Position numbers and translations under genes: made by a program. A model generated the notes under the pieces. The model saw only the letters and a list, made by a program, of their open reading frames with translations. It was not told where the DNA came from and did no database searches. Source: Saccoglossus kowalevskii (taxonomy: Eukaryota > Hemichordata > Enteropneusta > Harrimaniidae). Taken from it: a DNA stretch of 39,905 bases. Positions 1 through 34,400 of the stretch are shown here, piece after piece (position 1 is the stretch's first letter; every line of letters begins with the position of its first letter). Location: contig NW_003127385.1 of assembly GCF_000003605.2 (NCBI RefSeq), forward strand, positions 14,273 to 54,177. Direction: 5' to 3'.

Positions 1-418
1 GTTGGCGTTGGCTGATGTAAGTTGTAGTTTGTTTTGATTGTAGATTATTTGCTTTACGTTATTCGTACAGCTGTAGCTCAATTTGATGGTGTTATAGCTG
101 AAAATTTTCCTGAGTTTGTTTCCTTGTTGGGAACACTTCTCCCGACGCTCTTAGTGACATTTTTACTGAAGGGGGGGTTAAACCAGAGGATATTGTTACG
201 GGATATGTTTGCCCTTCTTCTTTCGGTGAATTTGAGGTGATAATCATATCCACTTTGATTTAGAGCTGTCTGGTAGGATGGCGCGGCTAGATCAAAGTGT
301 TTTTTGTCTGATGAAAGATATAACAATCGTTTGTAGATTCCAGTCAATATTCTTTGTGATGGAGGGTGGGTAGTTGCTCTCTCTATGTACGTATAGTGGG
401 TGGCTGTTGGGTTTAATA
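1..418 (-). mobile_element. Penelope-like element, partial copy A (RT C-terminal part)
   Basis: The minus strand reads as the region just after the reverse-transcriptase core of Penelope-like elements. Recognisable pieces are NSHPLYVHRESNYPPSITK, then YQTALNQSGYDYHLKF, then NNILWFNPPFSKNVTKSVG, which is close to the family's usual Asn-Pro-Pro-Phe-Ser-Lys-Asn-Val block. The copy is broken by frameshifts and small deletions compared with copy B at about 2005-2467, to which it is clearly homologous along its length. It runs off the left edge of the window, so any endonuclease portion lies outside. Homology to copy B stops at 418, immediately next to the microsatellite tail of the LINE fragment. 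It is a dead fragment. Confidence 0.85.
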
Positions 419-438: not shown

Positions 439-616
439 GATGAAAATACAATAAAGTAGTACAAAAAGATAGCAAACACAAGACATTTACAGACATTTGA
501 ATAAAGTTGGTTGGTTGAGGCATCTGTCATTTTAGGATTTTTTCTTGTCGTAATTTGAAACAAGTGTGGATGAATTTTCCTAGCTCAATGATTGTTTTGT
601 CATTTTTACTTTTTGT

Positions 617-658
617 ATATCTGCATGGAACTATAAACCCCTAGTTCCATGATATCTG
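617..658. repeat. 28-bp palindromic insert with 7-bp direct repeats (copy 1)
   Basis: ATATCTG (617-623) and ATATCTG (652-658) flank a 28-bp palindrome (624-651). Its arms are CATGGAACTA and TAGTTCCATG, with an 8-nt centre TAAACCCC. It lies inside the LINE remnant. The same palindrome, three bases longer, recurs at 1409-1439 with a different 7-bp flanking repeat. This is the pattern expected of two insertions with target-site duplication. Confidence 0.75.
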
Positions 659-1356
659 TAAGTTGTTCGTCATCCGTCCCCAAGTTGCTTTTATTGTATT
701 TAATTTTCTTGACCATGATTTCTCGTTCCTTCTTGTATAGATTACAATTGTTTTTCGTTTTCAATGTTTTCCTGTTTGTCACAAACTGGGCAAATTCGGT
801 CCTCCGCTAAAATGTTATTATATCTGCCCCTTTCGATTTGAAGAGTATGAACACTTATTCTGAGTTTTGTCATAGTAGCTCTATGATTTGGATTTTTGAT
901 TGTGGTGAGATATTTTTCACTGTTACCCAGTTGTCTTTTCCTTTTGTATCAAGATGTATTCCAAGATTGTAAGCGTCATGCATGTACTAGTGAATTTGGG
1001 TTAGAATTATTTATTTTGATCCAATATTTGATCATATATTTTAAGCGTGTTGCTAGGAGAGGATATCTTCCCAACTCTAGTAGGCTTGCAAAATTACTTG
1101 CTTTGCTATTTACTTTTAGGGGGTATTTGCAGAAATGTATTTGTACTTTTTTCCATTTCCATTTTTAAGTATGTTTTGATTGGAATTAGTTTTCTGAGAA
1201 TAGCATTTGTTTCATTTTAAAAATAGCCTTCAATGCTCTAGCTCTGAGGTCTTCTTGTGCTCCGATAAATTTACCTGATTTGTGTAGTTTAATGCCGAGG
1301 TATGTGTAGGTTTTTGTATTTTCAAGTTCCTTTTCATCAATATTTAATAAAGTCTT

Positions 1357-1408
1357 AACTCGTGATGAGTGAGGTACTCCATGTATCTTACGAAACAGTA
1401 CTGTAGAG
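1357..1408 (+). other. Hammerhead-ribozyme-like fold (one core base wrong)
   Basis: Read on the plus strand, 1363-1368 is UGAUGA. It is followed by a 9-bp stem II (1369-1377 with 1383-1391, two G-U pairs, loop UCCAU), then GAAA at 1392-1395. A minimal stem III follows (CAG 1396-1398 with CUG 1401-1403), then UA at 1404-1405 as a permitted NUH cleavage triplet (GUA). Stem I CUC 1359-1361 pairs with GAG 1406-1408. This is the order of a hammerhead ribozyme. The invariant C before UGAUGA is G at 1362, which should abolish cleavage, but the inverted copy at 1449-1481 has the expected C. The segment is antisense to LINE coding sequence, so coincidence is possible. Confidence 0.3.
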
Positions 1409-1446
1409 CATGGAACTATAAAGGGTTTATAGTTCCATGTGTAGAG
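1402..1446. repeat. 31-bp perfect palindromic insert with 7-bp direct repeats (copy 2)
   Basis: TGTAGAG (1402-1408) and TGTAGAG (1440-1446) flank a 31-bp palindrome at 1409-1439. Its 14-bp arms (CATGGAACTATAAA and its exact complement) surround a 3-nt loop, GGG. Apart from orientation and a 3-nt difference it matches the insert at 624-651. Removing the insert and one repeat restores continuous LINE coding (VHSTVLFRKIH), which supports a true insertion. Confidence 0.8.
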
Positions 1447-1556
1447 TGAACCTCACTCATCAGGAGTTAAGACTTTATTAAATAAACCACCGAAACAGAC
1501 TACGTTATAAGCGCTACAGATTTGCATAACAATGGAGTGTGTTTACGATATTAAAA

Positions 1557-2005: not shown

Positions 2006-2748
2006 GTGTATTGGTGTTGGCCGCTGTAAGTTGTTGTTTGTTTGTTTTGATTGCAGATTATTTGCTTTACGTTATTCGTACAACTGTAGCTCAATTTGAT
2101 GGTGTTACGGCTGAAAATTTTCCTGAGTTTGTTTCTCTGTTGGAAACACTTATCAACCAGGGTGAGGAATCTTCTCCCGACGCTGTTAGTGGCATTTTTA
2201 CTGAAGGGGGGGGGGGGTTAAACCAGAGGATGTTGTTACGAGGTCTGTCTGTTCTTCTTCTTTCCGTGGGGGGTTCGAATTTGAGGTGATAATCATATCC
2301 ACTTTGATTTAGAGCTGTCTGGTAGGGTGGCACGGCTAGATCAAAGTGTTTTTCGTCTGATGAAAGATATGACAATCGTTTGTTGATTCCTGCCGGTGTA
2401 TTCTTTGTGATGGAGGGTGGGTGTTTCTCTCCATGTACGTATAGTGGGTGGCTGTTGGGTTTAATATATGGATCGTAAGAGCTGTCAGTGAGGTTGAATG
2501 TGACGTCCAGGAAGTTGACAATATTTTTATTAGCTTCGATTGTGACTTTCAGACCGTGTAGTTTGAAAATACGACAGATGGCTTTTTTATTTTTTCAGTT
2601 TCTTTGGGTGTGTTGTCTACAGCGGCTAAGCCATCATCTCTGTACAGGCCGATCATTTTCCCGCAAATATCATGTAGCTGTGACAATAAAAAGCATCCAA
2701 CTAATTCACACGTCTCTGCGCCGTCGAAACTGCCCATAGTTACGTCGA
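2006..2748 (-). pseudogene. Penelope-like element copy B, reverse transcriptase region
   Basis: The minus strand reads [19 protein letters not shown], then GLYRDDGLA with the catalytic Asp-Asp pair of RT motif C in the Penelope-type context. In a second frame follow [18 protein letters not shown] and NFLDVTFNLTDSSYDPYIKP, then LYVHGE, YQTALNQSGYDYHLKFEPP and RNNILWFNPP. A frameshift lies in an A-rich run at about 2582-2598. Further breaks occur around the G-run at 2207-2217 and at about 2110. The copy is 5'-truncated at an AT microsatellite near 2749, so the N-terminal RT motifs are missing. It continues downstream into the endonuclease at 1557-2005. Confidence 0.88.
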
Positions 2749-2770
2749 ATATATATATATGTATGTATAT
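2749..2770. repeat. AT/GTAT microsatellite
   Basis: A short run of (AT)n followed by GTATGTATAT sits exactly where PLE copy B loses RT homology. It marks the truncation junction. Confidence 0.6.
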
Positions 2771-5700
2771 GATTTTTCTATCATATGTGACTGCCAACAA
2801 TAATGAGATATACTCTTGCCATTTAAAACAATGGTAAATGCCTTGAACAATCAAAACATTTTATTTCACTCGATTTCTAAACAAAATGCGGTGACACCAT
2901 ATGTTCATTTCATTATTTACATCCCTGTCACATGCAACATATTATCAAAAAATACAATGTTTTAATAACTTTTGAAGTTTTCAACATTAAATAGCATTTT
3001 CTTCCAAATTAGTATTATCGAGGACAAAGCGTCCTCGAATTGTCTTAATTTATATTTTTTTTCTTTAAAGAACACCTCTTCTGGTTCGTTTTTTAGGGTA
3101 AACAGGGTATTACAGTTATGTATTATTATTTATTTTATGTAGTGAATAAATGAACCCGATACGAACCCTTATTATACTTGTTTCTGAGGACATATCCCTA
3201 AAACAGTTAGTCATTCACCCAAACCATAGACCGAACGTGTTTGTCCCTGATAAATCTGAGTAATTTAACCCTCAACAAATGCCACGTGACAGAACGAAAT
3301 CCGCATTGTCCCGAGGTTGTTAATGTTATTTCCAGGCTCAAGAAATTAATTAAGTGCTTCGTATTTTCACCATATCATGTCGGATTTATCTACACTTTTT
3401 ACGAGGTAGTTATTTAGACATATGTGTCTGCGACAGAGTCGCTATTGTTGGTTCTAGGTTTATAATAGAATGCTTTTAACACTCATTAAATTATATATGT
3501 ATCAATAACTTATTTTCCTTGAAACCTATTCATTTAAATTATTTAGAACATTTCATCTTTTTAATCTCTTAAACGAGTTCTATTTATACATCATAAGCAT
3601 ATATTTATACATATATATAAGCATATTTATACATATATAAGCATATTGCAACTATATGTACAATAACTATGATCACTCTGTGAACTTGAGCCACTGATAA
3701 AAACCCTGCAATTGTTAAAAACATGATTCTCTGTTTTTTTTCTAAACTTTGTATTTCAGGCAGTGTCGTTAATTGCACATGAAATAATAATAACTCAAAC
3801 AGGTACGAAAAGATTCTAAATATATGAAGATAACTTACGTTTTACTGGTCTTACTAGCTTAGACTAGACATCGCATTGTGAAGGAGAGCTTCTCGATTAA
3901 TTCAAAAAAAGTAATGACGAATATTACGCCACTAGCTTTCTATGGTGCCATCATTATTTGATCAATGGTGGAATTACTATCAAAACCAAACACATGAATA
4001 TTCAACACCACTTAGCGTCAGGGCCAATCTCTGATAATGAACCATTATTTGATATTCAACTGACCATACTGTTTTAGTCTAATCAGTGGCACAGGGTAGC
4101 GATATTCTCAAACATAGTCTATTATCACCACATAGATGTATGTTAGATAATGAGTGGTATGTTTAAAAATGGTCGAGAGGTCCCTTTTTGTCATTTTCGG
4201 GAATGTGTGATATGTGGTATTGATAGGTCCATTTTACCATGATTTATGACGCTGCATAAAATATTTAAACAAATTTAAGAGTTGGGCTTTCCTTGAAATC
4301 TTGTTACGAACAATATTTTTTTTTGAAAATTTGTTTTAAAGGCTGGGGTTTTCAGAAATGTGGACCATGATTTTCACTAAAAGTGGGGGCTTCGTATTAC
4401 CGTATATAAATAATACATATGACCACCCCACCGTGATTGAATCATGATGTATTAAACACCAACTCGAATCGACACAATTTTAATTTGTTACATCATAATT
4501 TATAATTTGTCCTGTTAAATGTATTTTGTTCCGTGCAATGATTTTCGTGTTGTAATGAATCATTTGCAGGTCGCTTGTGTATGTGGTATTCGCTATGTTT
4601 ATGCTAGCTTCGTATTTAATTAGTTAATTTGCACCAATCAACTAGAGTTTGGCTGTCAATAAAATTTTAACATTTACCTGACAAATTATTATGAGATAAA
4701 TAGTTATTTCGACTAACTGACATCACATGACTGCGTACATAACTTGGAACAAAATAGACGTGTGTTGATCGCATACCATGACACAAGTATCCAGTGACAC
4801 AAATACCCGCTATCACTTAATTATTAGATTTTTTTATTTTAAATAAATGCTATGACTTAATGAAGCAAAACCGCCCAACTCAATCAGATTTGCAACATGT
4901 AAAATCGTAGACATACACGTTACTTTAGTTGTACACAGTATATAGCCATTAGGTTGTGCTTCCTAACAAATACTAATGATTGGTGAACGTTGATTAAATC
5001 ACTCTTTATTTAACTACTACGAGTGGGCAGTATGAACACATCCGTAAATATACCATGAGGCATATAAATTATGAATTTATGTTAACTTAATCCACTGTGG
5101 TAGGCACACTGCTCCTCGGGAAGGAAATCAGTACCTTCATCTACTTCGGTTTTTAACGATTTTGTGCCAATTAGAGACAATTCAGACGGATGGCGATATC
5201 CTAAAGCATTGTTATAGGCATTGATTATTTATGTTAGATACAGTGCCGACACCCCATGCTGCACAACCACTGACTAACTAACTCATCACCTGCCATATTG
5301 CGACAGGTCAAGAAGGTTTATTTTAATATATATTTTACCTTATATAGTTGATGTTATACATAATGTTTGAATGAATGAATGACTAATATACTATTATAAA
5401 ATCACAAAATCTAAATCACAGTATGTTCATAGCTGAGTGTTTTCAGTCAGACGTGTCTAGTATAGCTTCACATTACATCTAAAAGAATATAAATTTTTAT
5501 TTCGATTCATGATTATTGTTTCTACTTTATCGTGACGGGATGAATCACTATTACAGACCGAGTAAGAACTTGTAGTATATCCAGAATGATTGTATTTATA
5601 GTATGAGCATACAACATTATATTTCATAAATAAAATGATATTAATATAATATATATTGTTATCAATGTTACGATTACAGTTGTAACCTAAATGGCTTGAA

Positions 5701-25288: not shown

Positions 25289-25493
25289 CTACACGGATGT
25301 TGGCTGTGGCATCGCTGACGTGGAGTGGACGTTGACGGTGCTGATGGGAGGTCCGTGCTCGTCTGTAGTCATCCCGACCATTGACATGCTGGGTTTGAAA
25401 TAGTGACCCATCGCCAGCATCATAGCGTCTTCGTAATCTTCCTCGCATAGTATTTTATTGTTTCGGAGATAGAATTTGTCACCAACACAGAAC
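25289..25493 (-). CDS. LMO: LMO exon 4: end of LIM2 and C-terminal tail
   Basis: The acceptor is TTTGTTTTGTAG just above 25493. The first base completes an Arg codon split AG|G with exon 3. The exon encodes [20 protein letters not shown], finishing LIM2 with Cys146 and Asp149. A Met-, Ser- and Thr-rich tail follows, ending in PQPTSV, with a TAG stop at 25291-25289. The tail is longer than the very short one of vertebrate LMO1/3. The final Thr-Ser-Val fits the class I PDZ-ligand pattern (S/T-x-hydrophobic), but that may be chance in a nuclear protein. Confidence 0.93.
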
Positions 25494-28400
25494 CTACAAA
25501 ACAAATCGCAATACCTGAGTAGAGCTAATAAACTAATTTCCTTCAGGAAAACTGAATTGCTTCTAGGCACCGGTGTTGTTGTTGTTGTTGTTGTGTGTGT
25601 TTGTGTGTGTCAAGTTTGTGTAGCTTAGGTTTAGTAGGAGGAAGGTATTGTTCAATTTTTATTAATATTGGTATAATTGATTATATTAATAAATTAATTA
25701 ATTTACATGGATCTAACAAAGTACCGTTTCATGAACACTGAATTTTAACATAAATTAAACACGTCATAATGGCGATAATCGGCAACTTCGTAGGATTGTG
25801 TGTGGTTTAATAGAAAATATCAGTGAGCTAATATCTCCTCCAACAAGTTGTAAACAAACTGTGTTTGAGAAATCGAACGTTTGATTATAAAGCATCTTAC
25901 GGTACAATCATAATGTATGGAAACTACGACCGGTGGGATTCAGTGATGACAATAAACAAAACTACAAGACGTTTTGAACTGAAACAGCAGTATAGATAAC
26001 ATCTATATATTATTTTGTTAGGCTTATTTCGAAGCAGGCAATATAATTGTATTTGTTCCATGAAATGTATTTAAATTAAAAGTACGTGCCAGAAATTCGC
26101 AACGCATGCGCAGCGATTACTAGTTGACTATAACTAAGTTTCATCATGATGCTCAATTGAAAAATGCAATTTCGACCGTACTTAAGATAGGATTGCCCTT
26201 TATTACGCAACGTATCGGTATTAGAAACCCGTATTCATGAATTGTGTGGACGCAATCTGGCCAAAAAAGTGATAGAATATGTTGCTTAAATATATGAAAT
26301 ATATATGCCAATTGCTTACCTGTGGTTGCACTGTTGACATGCAAAACATTCAAGGTGGTATACATTGTCCCTTGCCCTCATTACCATTTCAAATGCAGGG
26401 ATTACTTTGGCACACGCAGCACAGTAACCGGTTGTACCGAATAACCTGTAACATATTTTGAAAGACGTGTGAGGAACATTGCATAAAATGTGAAATGTCT
26501 TTAATTTGTCGAAACTATGTATGACACTGACTTCCGGTCACAATTACAAATATATATCACCCATGAAACAGCAGCTGACAATGTTCATAACAATGATTGA
26601 AATTCGGCAAATTATGGGTTCATTTTGGCCAGAAGTCTCTCAAATTCTCAAGATCAACGATGCAATTTGTGGGGGAGCTGCTGGGTTGAGTGGACGACCA
26701 TCCCTCCCTTCTCCGACGGGATATCAATAAAAGAACAATATCCCCTCATCGAGGTTTATCTATCAGTCAGTTATCTGCTTATAGTTGGAATAATCGAAAT
26801 ATGCGAAACAATAAACAGGAGAAGCATTTTCGCTTTCAAACAAAATTCTAATTAATAATGACGATGATATGACGATAATGGGTGACAGTAGGTAATCGTG
26901 GATGTTATTTGTAATTCCGTTATATGGCTATTTATAACCCTGTAACCTAACAGTCAATCCAATCAGAAAGTAGCTTGTCTGTTGACTGGTTTCTTCAACA
27001 AATCAAAATAAATCTTATATAAATTCTTCGACTCAACTGTCAGAACTAGCTATGATGTTTGGATGTAGAAACGATATATCATTGTACCAATGACAAGATC
27101 AAAATAGGTTAGTCTATTAAACCTCATCTGTTGTACAAGTCAAGTAAACGCACTGTCAAGATGCAAAAGAAGGGTTCAGTGTCTGCGAGTTTGACATTTT
27201 AGTTTTGTTTGTTGAATAAAAGTGTTCAAGGGAGATTATAAAAGCACTGAGAATAATAACGTTAGACTAAAATATGGTGTTTATTTATTTATATTGCATA
27301 TCATAATGAGTATAACATAATGACTTTAAAATGACACGTTCGGGCATTCTTTCATGATTTACGACAGGCCGAAAACTCAATACCATGACAGCCAGATTAT
27401 AACTTCGATAAGGCAGTTAGGTTTTTCGCACTCTCGTAATCTGCGTTAGTATTAAAATTAATCTGTTAACAGTTTGTCTCGTTTTGTTAAAACGATGGAC
27501 GTGCACGACTTAGACGGCACCATGTCACCAGCCCCATCTAAATCTATAACTCACCACACAATCCGACAATTTAAATTCACGGGTTTCGTTAATTATAAAT
27601 CGCCTAGGCGATGTCATCAGTATCGTCAGACTAAACTTAAAATTCTCCTCGTCGGTACCCGATCATCGGGAATCATGAATGCTCACTCGGATATGTCGGT
27701 TGACTAAACCCATTTTCCCCAAAGGATGAAAGACATGCTTGCTAATTCTATTTTCTCGCATCCCCCGAGACTGCCCTCTATCGCTGGGGTAATGAATTGT
27801 GTACATAGTGTTACATTATTTAGTTATTTTAGCGACTGCCCCTATTATTGACGATCGTCTGTTTGATCAATTATGATGGCGGATTTTACAGGCCCATGAA
27901 CAAATGGTGCGAACGAAATAGAATTTATTCTGGCTGAGAGCGACGGTTTGGAGAGGTTGAATGTCCTGTGGGAGCAATGATAATCATGGTGATGGATGGA
28001 GTGATAGATACCGAAAGAGTTTATTTCTCAAATGTTTGCTTCTTTTCCGTCCCATACTGATCTACGACGCCCAAATATTCCAGGTTTCGTACGCATGATA
28101 CACACCACCAGGAGTTAAAACGGTGGGAAAAAAATTCGACCTCACCCGGTATGTATATACAGAAAATATGGAATTACGTCATGACAAGCTGCGACTTTTT
28201 TGAACAGTAGTATTTTTTTATCGTGAATCATGATGAAAAACCTCACTGCTTCGAATAGTGTGTTCGGTTTATATATTTCAACATTTCAAGTAATTTCATA
28301 GATACTTTTGTACAGCACTGTTAAACTCAAAATATATAACCGTTTATTAAAGTTTTAGTCTTGTGATGGTGACGGCTAACACAGTGACTGCAGACTGACT

Positions 28401-31400: not shown

Positions 31401-34400
31401 ACGCTCGGTGCCAACTTAATTTAAGCATATGCCTCTAAAGTTAATAGCATGAGATTACGCCATATTCTCCACCAATGTGAAATAAATTCCCTTCTCCCGA
31501 ACATTCGGCAGTATAGGTCTAACGAAAAGACTGTTTAGAAGACCTTTCTAAATTTCTTCTTATTTATGTTTAACTGTTTTAATGCCGTTATTTTATTACT
31601 GTATTAATTACCACATATACACTAAATTGCAATCTAGGTGTAATTCAGACGACCCCAAGGACAATGTCTCGATTCATCCAGATTGGAATCGTCCACAGAA
31701 GATGACTATCGACCTACTTTCGCAGTGGCGGAGGAGTCCCTCTGGCCAGGCAGCGGAGAAAGTCATAGACAGCCGTAATGAAACCTACATTGATGTCTCC
31801 GCGCACCTGATTCTCTCGTGTTTTAATTGATCTATTGTAGTTCTTGTTTTAATTAAAATATTAATTAGAAGGCGGGAACAGGGAATTGCTGAAACAGTTT
31901 AATTAATTTTACTGCCTTGAAACTGAGTGTTTTGAAGCACGGATGTCGCAAATCGTAGCTGTGTTCATATATCATTTTGGGTGGGCGTTCTACTCGGGGT
32001 TTTCGCTGGTAAAAAAAACAGAAGGCCATTTAATTAAATAGTGGGACCGGGTGACGTAAACTAATGAATAAATGTACCAATGCGGAAGAATGAAATTACG
32101 ACACTTTCATAATTTTCCACATGACCTGTGGGCGCCAACAACTTTGAAATATTAATAACACCACCGGGTTATTTGCTCGTGGTGTATTAAACTATCGAAA
32201 TATGACTGGGTCGTTAAACATATTCACACACGTTGTACAGAGGATGGACGGCAATGACCCCCGACTTCATAAATTTGGAGTTTATTTCCAAAATATTTCA
32301 GTATAATATTTACGTTACATTTTACACTGTTTTTAATTACATACTCATATATTTAAAAAAAGTTTGACCACGATGCCGTGACGTTAGAATTGCGTCTCAA
32401 GGGTTATATGGACAAATTAGACCCGTATTTGTTTGACCCAAGCTCAGGCGTCTCCCGCTGACGTTTTAGATACTGCAAACATGCAGTAGACTAAGGACGG
32501 CGGTGTGCTCGGGTGGGTGTACATTTGGGAAACAAAGCTATGCACAGAACATTACATGTAAAAAATTCCTGCAGCTGGATTTAAATATATATAATCCGTA
32601 TAATCGCTTGATAGAGAAAAGTAAAATATTTATAGCAACATTATCCTGGAAAATTAATAGATCAAAAACTAAGTGAAAGAAAAAATATTAATTTGCACAG
32701 TTTTTCTACCATTTCTACCATAACTAACCGCTTAACAAGCACAACAGAACGGTTACAGTGAAACGTTGTGTCACAATGGCGTTGACATTACGTTTACGCT
32801 AGCTACTCAACTTCTTCAGGTGAATCAATATCGACACAGTGAAAAATGTATGCCACTTTCATGATTTCAATTTCTTGAACCACGGTTGATGTGTAGTTGA
32901 GAGCCTCCAAAAAAACAACGTCAAACTGTGGAATTATTATCATTCAATCAATTACCCCAACTTGCAGAATATCATTTCAATCATGCCAATAGCATAATTT
33001 CAGAGGGTTAACTAACGATTTATTCAAAGAGTAGGTATGTAAACAGAGTAGTAGGTGAAAAGGCGCAGACTGTCTGAACATAGCATAAACCAGTATATGA
33101 TATGATGAATGTCACTATATCCCGGACAAAAGTGGTATTAGGACAATCCTAGATGGTAACATATTTCGACTCTGCAAATTGGGAATTCAAAGACTATTGT
33201 ACTAATTAATGTTACGTCATTATGTACACTGGCTCGTACTAGGAAGTCGTCGGAAAATGAAACGTGGATCACGTATCATGAACAGCTGGTCAATAAGAAT
33301 ACATCTCTTGATTTTGGCACATGTATAATTTGAAAGATTGTCGGTTTTATCGTGGGTTATATATTTGAATATTTGTATGCGTTATTGTGCCTCTTATTCT
33401 TCCGTTACATGCTACTGCCTAAATACCCAATAAAGGGTTAGGGTCGTCTTACGTCAGAAAATACGCACGAAACATATGAACATATGACATTACATAATAG
33501 ATGTAAGGCATTGATTTCTGAAATACTGAGAACGACTATGGATGAAGGTAATCCAGTCAAATTTGTAATTACTACTGAAGGCCCAGCCAAAATTTATTCT
33601 AAAGATCCATCTCGGCGTACTTCATTCATGGCAAAAAAAACAAACAAAAAAAACAAAAAAAACACTGAATGGCAGTTCCGGCTATGTTACTTAAATGTGG
33701 TTGACTATTTTGACCCTGAAGAAAAAATATCGCTTCGTTTTGTCCGAGAGGAATGTTTCGCGGCATTCGATCACTGACATATTGAAAACAACGACACTTA
33801 TAGACACTTTTATCGCTAACGCATGATACTCTTTTGTTTTCAAGCTTCGTCAGGGAACGACAGAGCAAAACAAAACTGTGAGTGGAAACCCTCGGGTGTT
33901 TTTACCGCCTACCCTGTCAGCTCATATTTCTTCTATACAATCTGTATTGTGCTAGTGTTACACTAATTTTTGTGTACGCAGTATTCGCAGTGCATACAAC
34001 TAGGATATATTGCTGTGGTCTCTTTCTTCCGCAAGATGTGTTGGTGTGCGCGGTACGAGTGCATCATTTGCCCTGTCGACGTCCAAGTGCAATAGTAGTG
34101 CGAAATCCGCACATTCTGTTAATATTTCGGTAACAAAACAGTCAAATTATCTCGAATATCATGCCACGCACAATGTATCCACGCATTGGAGCAACATTGT
34201 GCTAGTATTGCATACCACCGGCTCAGACTGTCGTGGCAATAGTCAGCATGGAAACCAGGAGAAACAATTACCCGGACTGAGTTATGCCGAGATTCGATTA
34301 ACGATGAAAATAATTTACATTTTTTTCACACGGTATTAAAATAAAATAGTTCCCCCTAGGCACTATTTATTTTGCTGTTTCGCCGTAAAATAAAAGTATT

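What the first reader, a model, noticed from the sequence alone, without database searches (positions are those of the whole stretch)
1402..1446. 31-bp perfect palindrome flanked by a 7-bp target-site-like duplication
TGTAGAG brackets a hairpin with 14-bp arms and a 3-nt loop, and excising the insert with one repeat restores LINE coding sequence. With its relative at 624-651 this looks like a mobile unit of about 30 bp, far smaller than ordinary MITEs. It could be two terminal inverted repeats with no interior, mobilised by a transposase that makes 7-bp duplications. Alternatively a hairpin oligonucleotide may have been captured during break repair.
Basis: partly seen in the sequence, partly recalled or inferred. 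Interest (0 to 1): 0.75.

Follow-up and report, generated by a model that had tools for sequence, protein, structure and literature searches.

The report
Scars left by a jumping gene
The short palindrome is best read as the scar left when a transposon resembling the fruit-fly P element jumped out and the break was sealed, one of dozens of such scars in this genome rather than a tiny mobile element of its own.

Summary
In detail: at 1402-1446 a 31-bp palindrome lies between two copies of TGTAGAG. Its relative at 624-651 also has an exact 7-bp repeat, ATATCTG. The window's 572-Mb genome holds 310 copies of the 14-nt arm, 12 for the reversed control. The first 100 places listed are 79 loci, all looked at. 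Fourteen are transposons of 229-757 bp, mostly near 740 bp, with inverted ends beginning CATGGAACTATAAACCCC; 13 have exact 7-bp duplications. Fifty-two are short inserts like ours. Of all 54 short inserts, 46 sequences are distinct; 50 have exact 7-bp flanking repeats; 52 need at most 18 nt of either transposon end, joined bluntly, by microhomology or with filler. That is the anatomy of P-element excision footprints in Drosophila (PMC2895639 Table 1). Palindrome-free sites matching both window flanks exist elsewhere. So the insertion with 7-bp duplication is supported, but the ~30-bp unit is a footprint, not a mobile element. P-type transposase domains occur in the genome, but none was found linked to these ends; P-superfamily membership is inferred.

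The parts
1402..1408 (.). target duplication, left copy (TGTAGAG)
1409..1422 (+). 14 nt of one transposon end
   Evidence: matches the first 14 nt of the 30-bp end
1423..1439 (-). 17 nt of the opposite transposon end (CATGGAACTATAAACCC on the - strand)
1440..1446 (.). target duplication, right copy (TGTAGAG)
617..623 (.). target duplication, left copy (ATATCTG) of the second footprint
624..641 (+). 18 nt of one transposon end
642..651 (-). 10 nt of the opposite transposon end
652..658 (.). target duplication, right copy (ATATCTG)
606..1452 (-). decayed LINE remnant that received both insertions (by eye, several frames; limits are ORF limits, not element limits)
   Evidence: no Pfam match over cut-off; palindrome-free copies of both flanks elsewhere

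Best explanation
Both palindromes are excision footprints of a non-autonomous DNA transposon family with 30-bp inverted ends (CATGGAACTATAAACCCCAGGAAGAACAAC) that works like a P element. SHOWN: elements, mostly near 740 bp, with these ends and 7-bp duplications; dozens of short inserts that keep both 7-bp duplications plus at most about 18 nt of each end, joined at variable points; palindrome-free versions of both window sites. INFERRED: the element inserted into a LINE copy and duplicated 7 bp. A P-type transposase later cut it out with a stagger, at the tip on one strand and about 18 nt inside on the other, so each chromosomal side kept an 18-nt 3' tail of transposon end. End joining trimmed and sealed the two tails, sometimes with microhomology or templated filler. 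Because the tails are inverted copies, the sealed product is a near-perfect palindrome of up to 36 bp between the duplications. At 1409-1439, 14 nt of one tail met 17 nt of the other; at 624-651, 18 nt met 10 nt.
For: Elements: of 11 pairs of ends fetched as long pairs (229-757 bp) 10 have an exact 7-bp duplication, L017 none; three further loci are elements of 694-739 bp with exact duplications and one mismatch in the far end. The 30-bp end occurs 109 times at <=2 mismatches, 0 in the control. Short inserts: the 100 places listed (of 310) are 79 loci, all looked at; 52 of 79 plus the 2 in the window are short inserts, 50 of 54 with an exact 7-bp repeat and 4 with one mismatch; 16-39 bp, 46 of 54 distinct. 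52 of 54 need no more than 18 nt of either end. Junctions: 27 exact, 8 with 1-3 nt microhomology, 19 with filler. Papers: P transposase leaves 17-nt 3' extensions (PMC7776569, passages); sealed P breaks have this anatomy (PMC2895639, section 7 with Table 1); Galileo of the P superfamily makes 7-bp duplications (PMC2775673, passages); zebrafish Pdre2 ends begin CATACC (PMC10983969, section 6). P-type transposase domains in this genome: PF21788 2 matches, PF21787 13 matches; an ORF of L077 matches PF21787 at 5.4e-28 and the fly P transposase structure 6p5a at E=0.0012.
Against: No copy with both these ends and a transposase gene was found. None of the 13 PF21787 loci (about 3.2-3.4 kb each) shows a convincing end, only two weak look-alikes; C1630:8300-18779 around the best one has only two look-alikes; none of the contigs in the 100 places listed (of 109) bears a match. 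The apparent tail is 18 nt, not the fly's 17, and the duplication 7 bp, not 8. L036 and L071 could hold a 19th nucleotide. The 14-nt seed demands at least 14 nt on one side, so footprints trimmed on both sides were missed and the tail lengths on that side are truncated from below. Filler counts include mutated right ends (for example L012, L056) and the 5-mer test for templating (8 of 19) had no control. Three of the 79 loci (L057, L069, L089) fit no class. L050 and L056 are one event copied in a dispersed repeat, so at most 53 of the 54 are independent.
Confidence: 0.92

Rival explanations
1. A self-mobile mini-element of about 30 bp: two inverted repeats without an interior, moved in trans by a transposase that makes 7-bp duplications.
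For: Dozens of copies with independent 7-bp duplications; one insert sequence occurs 3 times and six others twice at different sites.
Against: 46 of 54 inserts are distinct and differ at the junction, and lengths run from 16 to 39 bp; some keep nothing or only CATG of one end (L010, L037, L041, L058), which could hardly be mobile; elements of about 740 bp with the same ends exist.
Confidence: 0.04
2. Internal deletions of the transposon by interrupted gap repair (incomplete copying from the sister chromatid), not joining of the cut tails.
For: Longer deletion derivatives exist: L061 (93 bp), L026 (229 bp), L027 (243 bp).
Against: Incomplete copying should end at any distance inside the element; here 52 of 54 short inserts need no more than 18 nt of either end. 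The selection of inserts under 46 bp contributes to shortness but does not produce an edge at 18 of 30 nt on both sides.
Confidence: 0.03
3. The footprint reading is right, but the transposase belongs to another superfamily that also makes a long stagger and 7-bp duplications.
For: No transposase gene was found between these ends; tail and duplication lengths differ by one from the fly P element.
Against: The review read in passages calls the 17-nt stagger unusual and distinctive for P; the ends start CATG like the fly P element's; P-type domains are present in the genome. Dada (6-7-bp duplications) lacks terminal inverted repeats in its U6 and U1 families and targets small RNA genes (PMC3706591, passages), unlike the varied sites here.
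Confidence: 0.18
4. A hairpin oligonucleotide was captured during break repair.
For: The insert can fold into a hairpin.
Against: 7-bp duplications recur at dozens of loci and the inserts share their ends with full transposons.
Confidence: 0.01
5. The palindromes are native parts of the LINE family.
For: Both lie in one LINE-like remnant.
Against: Matches to the joined flanks without the palindrome: 27 places against 1 in the control, and 46 against 0.
Confidence: 0.01

Closest known systems
Drosophila melanogaster P element excision footprints (P{wa} repair junctions, PMC2895639 Table 1)
   Same: Both target duplications kept; parts of the two end tails joined head to head; blunt joins, short microhomologies and fillers; maximal tail set by a long staggered cut; ends start CATG.
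   Different: 8-bp duplication and 17-nt tails there, 7-bp and 18-nt here. Those were made in the laboratory from one insertion in Rad51-deficient flies; these are scars at dozens of genomic loci. The ends differ in sequence after CATG.
Galileo (P superfamily, Drosophila; PMC2775673, passages)
   Same: 7-bp target duplications; its target consensus GTAGTAC resembles the loose GTYWRAC that I read from 60 duplications pooled in both orientations.
   Different: Galileo has long, internally repetitive inverted ends; this family has 30-bp ends. No sequence comparison was made.
Zebrafish Pdre2 / THAP9 (PMC10983969, passages and section 6)
   Same: P-type element outside insects; ends begin CAT; internally deleted copies exist.
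   Different: 13-bp ends with distant subterminal repeats and 8-bp duplications; in fly cells its transposase left larger flanking deletions.
MITEs (general knowledge)
   Same: The ~740-bp element is a non-autonomous element with inverted ends and several size variants.
   Different: The palindromes of the finding are what is left after excision, not such elements.

Membership tests
P-element-type excision footprint | both target duplications retained around remnants of the two ends | tested here: met
   50 of 54 exact 7-bp, 4 of 54 with one mismatch; both window copies exact
P-element-type excision footprint | remnants limited to a long tail of each end (17 nt in the fly), with variable junctions | tested here: met
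   52 of 54 need at most 18 nt on either side; 46 of 54 distinct inserts. The limit here is 18, not 17
P-element-type excision footprint | full-length donor family with the same ends in the same genome | tested here: met
P superfamily of DNA transposons | target duplication of 7-8 bp | tested here: met
   exact 7 bp in 13 of 14 paired-end elements; 7-bp precedent Galileo
P superfamily of DNA transposons | terminal inverted repeats starting CA | tested here: met
   ends CATGGAAC; fly ends CATGATGA, zebrafish CATACC
P superfamily of DNA transposons | TNP/THAP9-type transposase encoded between the ends | tested here: inconclusive
   13 PF21787 and 2 PF21788 matches in the genome, none seen linked to these ends; pieces of two 740-bp-type elements gave no THAP match; four single-end loci run into N
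P superfamily of DNA transposons | staggered cut about 17 nt inside the ends | not testable with these tools
   inferred only, from the 18-nt limit of the footprints
[quoted passage not shown]
   no search made
Self-mobile mini-element of ~30 bp | copies share one interior sequence | tested here: not met
   46 of 54 inserts distinct, differing at the junction
Self-mobile mini-element of ~30 bp | copies flanked by independent target duplications | tested here: met
   equally expected of footprints

The most novel reading that the evidence does not exclude
The genome holds a natural archive of P-type excisions: a family whose transposase makes 7-bp duplications and cuts 18 nt inside its ends. 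The sum 7+18 equals the fly P element's 8+17, which would fit a conserved distance in the transposase-DNA complex. Its footprints outnumber full elements among the loci read (52 against 14 of 79) and record germ-line end joining, including templated, polymerase-theta-like fillers, in an animal outside the usual laboratory species.
Probability: 0.5. Interest if true: 0.55.

Novelty: new member of a known kind. Interest (0 to 1): 0.42.

Why it matters
It turns an apparent 30-bp mobile palindrome into a readable scar and shows that excision footprints of one transposon family can be collected from an assembly with one short motif. Such collections allow the cut position and target size of a transposase to be inferred without a biochemical assay, and show by which end-joining routes germ-line breaks were sealed. 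They also warn that a short palindrome with perfect target duplications need not be a transposon.

Tried and rejected
Rejected: mobile mini-element, hairpin capture, native LINE hairpin, interrupted gap repair (see rivals). The hairpin or end patterns gave 0 viral contigs and 8 bacterial contigs; 0 of those 8 have a flanking repeat, so they look like ordinary hairpins. Rfam: nothing at gathering thresholds in the window; the five matches at 1341-1484 up to E=1 are microRNA families far below their gathering scores and I read them as hairpin shape only. Pfam on ten window ORF pieces gave nothing over its cut-off. A frame in the 740-bp element that looked THAP-like to me gave no THAP match. Autonomous copy: not found. 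Copies of the window LINE inside the loci held: none beyond the insert itself. Literature: 20 of 106 shown; 6 of 6; 1 of 1; 2 of 2; 0; 12 of 31; 6 of 6; 1 of 1; no title or abstract start that I saw there describes a genome-wide survey of P-type footprints. This covers an open library only.

Dropped before the count of 54: two rows (L027 minus strand and L073), which are ends of longer elements whose inner GAACAAC resembles the duplication by chance. Kept in it: L050 and L056, copies of one event. One search gives 189 hairpin places per strand and 0 in the control, but of the 50 distinct places listed 21 lie in one tandem array on contig C913, so 189 is not used as a footprint count.

Full report
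What is there. I take it for an animal from LINE-like, Penelope-like and LIM-domain-like remnants read by eye; no call names the organism. At 1402-1446 the sequence is TGTAGAG + CATGGAACTATAAA-GGG-TTTATAGTTCCATG + TGTAGAG, as reported. The relative at 624-651 is flanked by its own exact 7-bp repeat, ATATCTG. Of 8 hairpins in the window (arms >=9, loop <=12) only these two have a flanking repeat. Forty simulated windows gave none with a repeat of 7 or more.

The first clue. The reverse complement of the 31-bp insert begins CATGGAACTATAAACCC, exactly the first 17 nt of the 28-bp insert. So the two inserts are not two copies of one palindrome but different joins of the same two ends: 14+17 nt at 1409-1439 and 18+10 nt at 624-651. 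That is the form of a P-element excision footprint.

Genome evidence. The 14-nt arm occurs 310 times, 12 in the reversed control. Only the first 100 places were listed; they are 79 loci, and all were looked at (loci). The classes, are: 14 elements with both ends paired, 229 to 757 bp, ten of them 694-757 bp, 13 of 14 with an exact 7-bp duplication (L017 has none); one 93-bp derivative, L061, with one mismatch in the duplication; 8 loci with one recognised end of a longer element (L039, L042, L049, L064, L073, L082, L085, L086), of which L042, L049, L064 and L073 contain 2,065 to 4,655 N and L082, L085 and L086 were read over 151 bp only; 52 short inserts; one loose footprint copy, L066; and three loci that I cannot explain, L057, L069 and L089. 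The 30-bp end occurs 109 times at <=2 mismatches and never in the control; all pairs visible among the 100 places listed span at most 906 bp.

The short inserts. With the two of the window there are 54. The 7-bp flanks are identical in 50 and differ by one base in 4 (L029, L050, L062, L090). Lengths run from 16 to 39 bp and 46 sequences are distinct. By my arithmetic, searching 32 positions for an exact 7-mer succeeds by chance in about 0.2% of loci, and with one mismatch allowed in about 4%, so a few of the one-mismatch cases could be chance. Shuffling right flanks among inserts left 1.03 exact pairs on average, a control that ignores the search over positions. In 52 of 54 no more than 18 nt of either end is needed; L036 and L071 could contain one further A. 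Junctions: 27 exact, 8 with 1-3 nt of microhomology, 19 with filler, 8 of these holding 5-mers found in the tails. The 5-mer test had no control, and some fillers are mutated right ends. The longest untrimmed forms are 18+18 nt (L029, L032) and 18+17 nt (L028). L050, L056 and L066 share similar flanks of about 60 bp on each side and are one footprint copied inside a dispersed repeat.

Empty sites. The joined flanks of 624-651, with one ATATCTG, match 27 genome places at <=3 mismatches, three of them with one mismatch, against 1 in the control. Those of 1409-1439, with one TGTAGAG, match 46 places, 27 with 2 and 19 with 3 mismatches, against 0 in the control. I did not read the surroundings of these places; that they are copies of the same LINE family is inferred from the match.

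How it works. Shown: insertion of a transposon family with 7-bp duplication; loss of the interior; retained tails of at most about 18 nt; variable sealing. Inferred: a transposase cut at the tip on one strand and 18 nt inside on the other, leaving 3' tails on the chromosome that end joining sealed. The fly P element does this with 17-nt tails (PMC7776569, passages), and its sealed breaks in spn-A flies (PMC2895639, section 7 with Table 1) have the same anatomy: duplication, partial end, microhomology or filler, partial end, duplication. Seven-base duplications occur in the P superfamily (Galileo, consensus GTAGTAC; PMC2775673, passages). Sixty duplications pooled in both orientations give, as I read the frequencies, a loose consensus GTYWRAC.

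Limits. I found no autonomous copy. P-type transposase domains exist: PF21788 twice and PF21787 13 times on 11 contigs. ORFs of L077 match PF21787 at 5.4e-28 and PF21789 at 1.2e-6, and one matches the fly P transposase structure 6p5a at E=0.0012. But the sequence held around them shows only weak look-alikes of these ends, and their contigs are not among the 100 places listed (of 109). For one search only 100 of 310 places are known, so linkage elsewhere is not excluded. A coding copy could also lie in the stretches that read N. The 14-nt seed and the 46-bp limit on insert length bias the survey towards little-trimmed, short footprints, so 52 against 14 is not an unbiased ratio. The family is P-like by mechanism and ends; its superfamily membership is inferred.

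Verdict. The palindrome is best explained as an excision scar, a new member of a known kind; the collection of scars across the genome gives it moderate interest.

Noticed in passing
window 1341-1375 and 1450-1484: A 35-bp inverted repeat (97% identical) brackets the footprint at 1402-1446. By recall it resembles the hammerhead region of Penelope-like elements, but Rfam gave no such match.
   Followed up: partly
window 2-418 and 2011-2466: Two copies, 84% identical, of a retroelement segment in the same orientation; minus-strand frames at 1557-2594 look like a Penelope-like element by eye, with no Pfam match over cut-off.
   Followed up: partly
G000 contig C913, 376-17488: An array with a period of about 854 bp, at least 21 units listed, each holding a hairpin CATGGAACTAAAACCCATCCAATTGTAGTTCCATG or a near variant; C47 holds one too. 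It may be a footprint amplified inside a satellite, or unrelated.
   Followed up: no
L050, L056, L066: One footprint appears to have been copied within a dispersed host repeat (similar flanks of about 60 bp on each side), so it would predate the spread of that repeat.
   Followed up: partly
L093-L105: 13 PF21787 (P-type transposase) matches in the same genome, several in long open frames (267-610 aa); 6 of the 13 matches have no stop inside.
   Followed up: partly
L009, L059, L090: Footprints with fillers that repeat parts of the transposon tails, as templated insertions would; no control was made.
   Followed up: partly
window 25289-25609 (-): ORF with a weak, sub-cut-off LIM-domain match (E=0.21); by eye the end of an LMO-type gene.
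   Followed up: no
window 33442-33777 (+): ORF with a sub-cut-off match to a PH-like domain of fungal RNA-dependent RNA polymerases (PF25358, E=0.0028).
   Followed up: no
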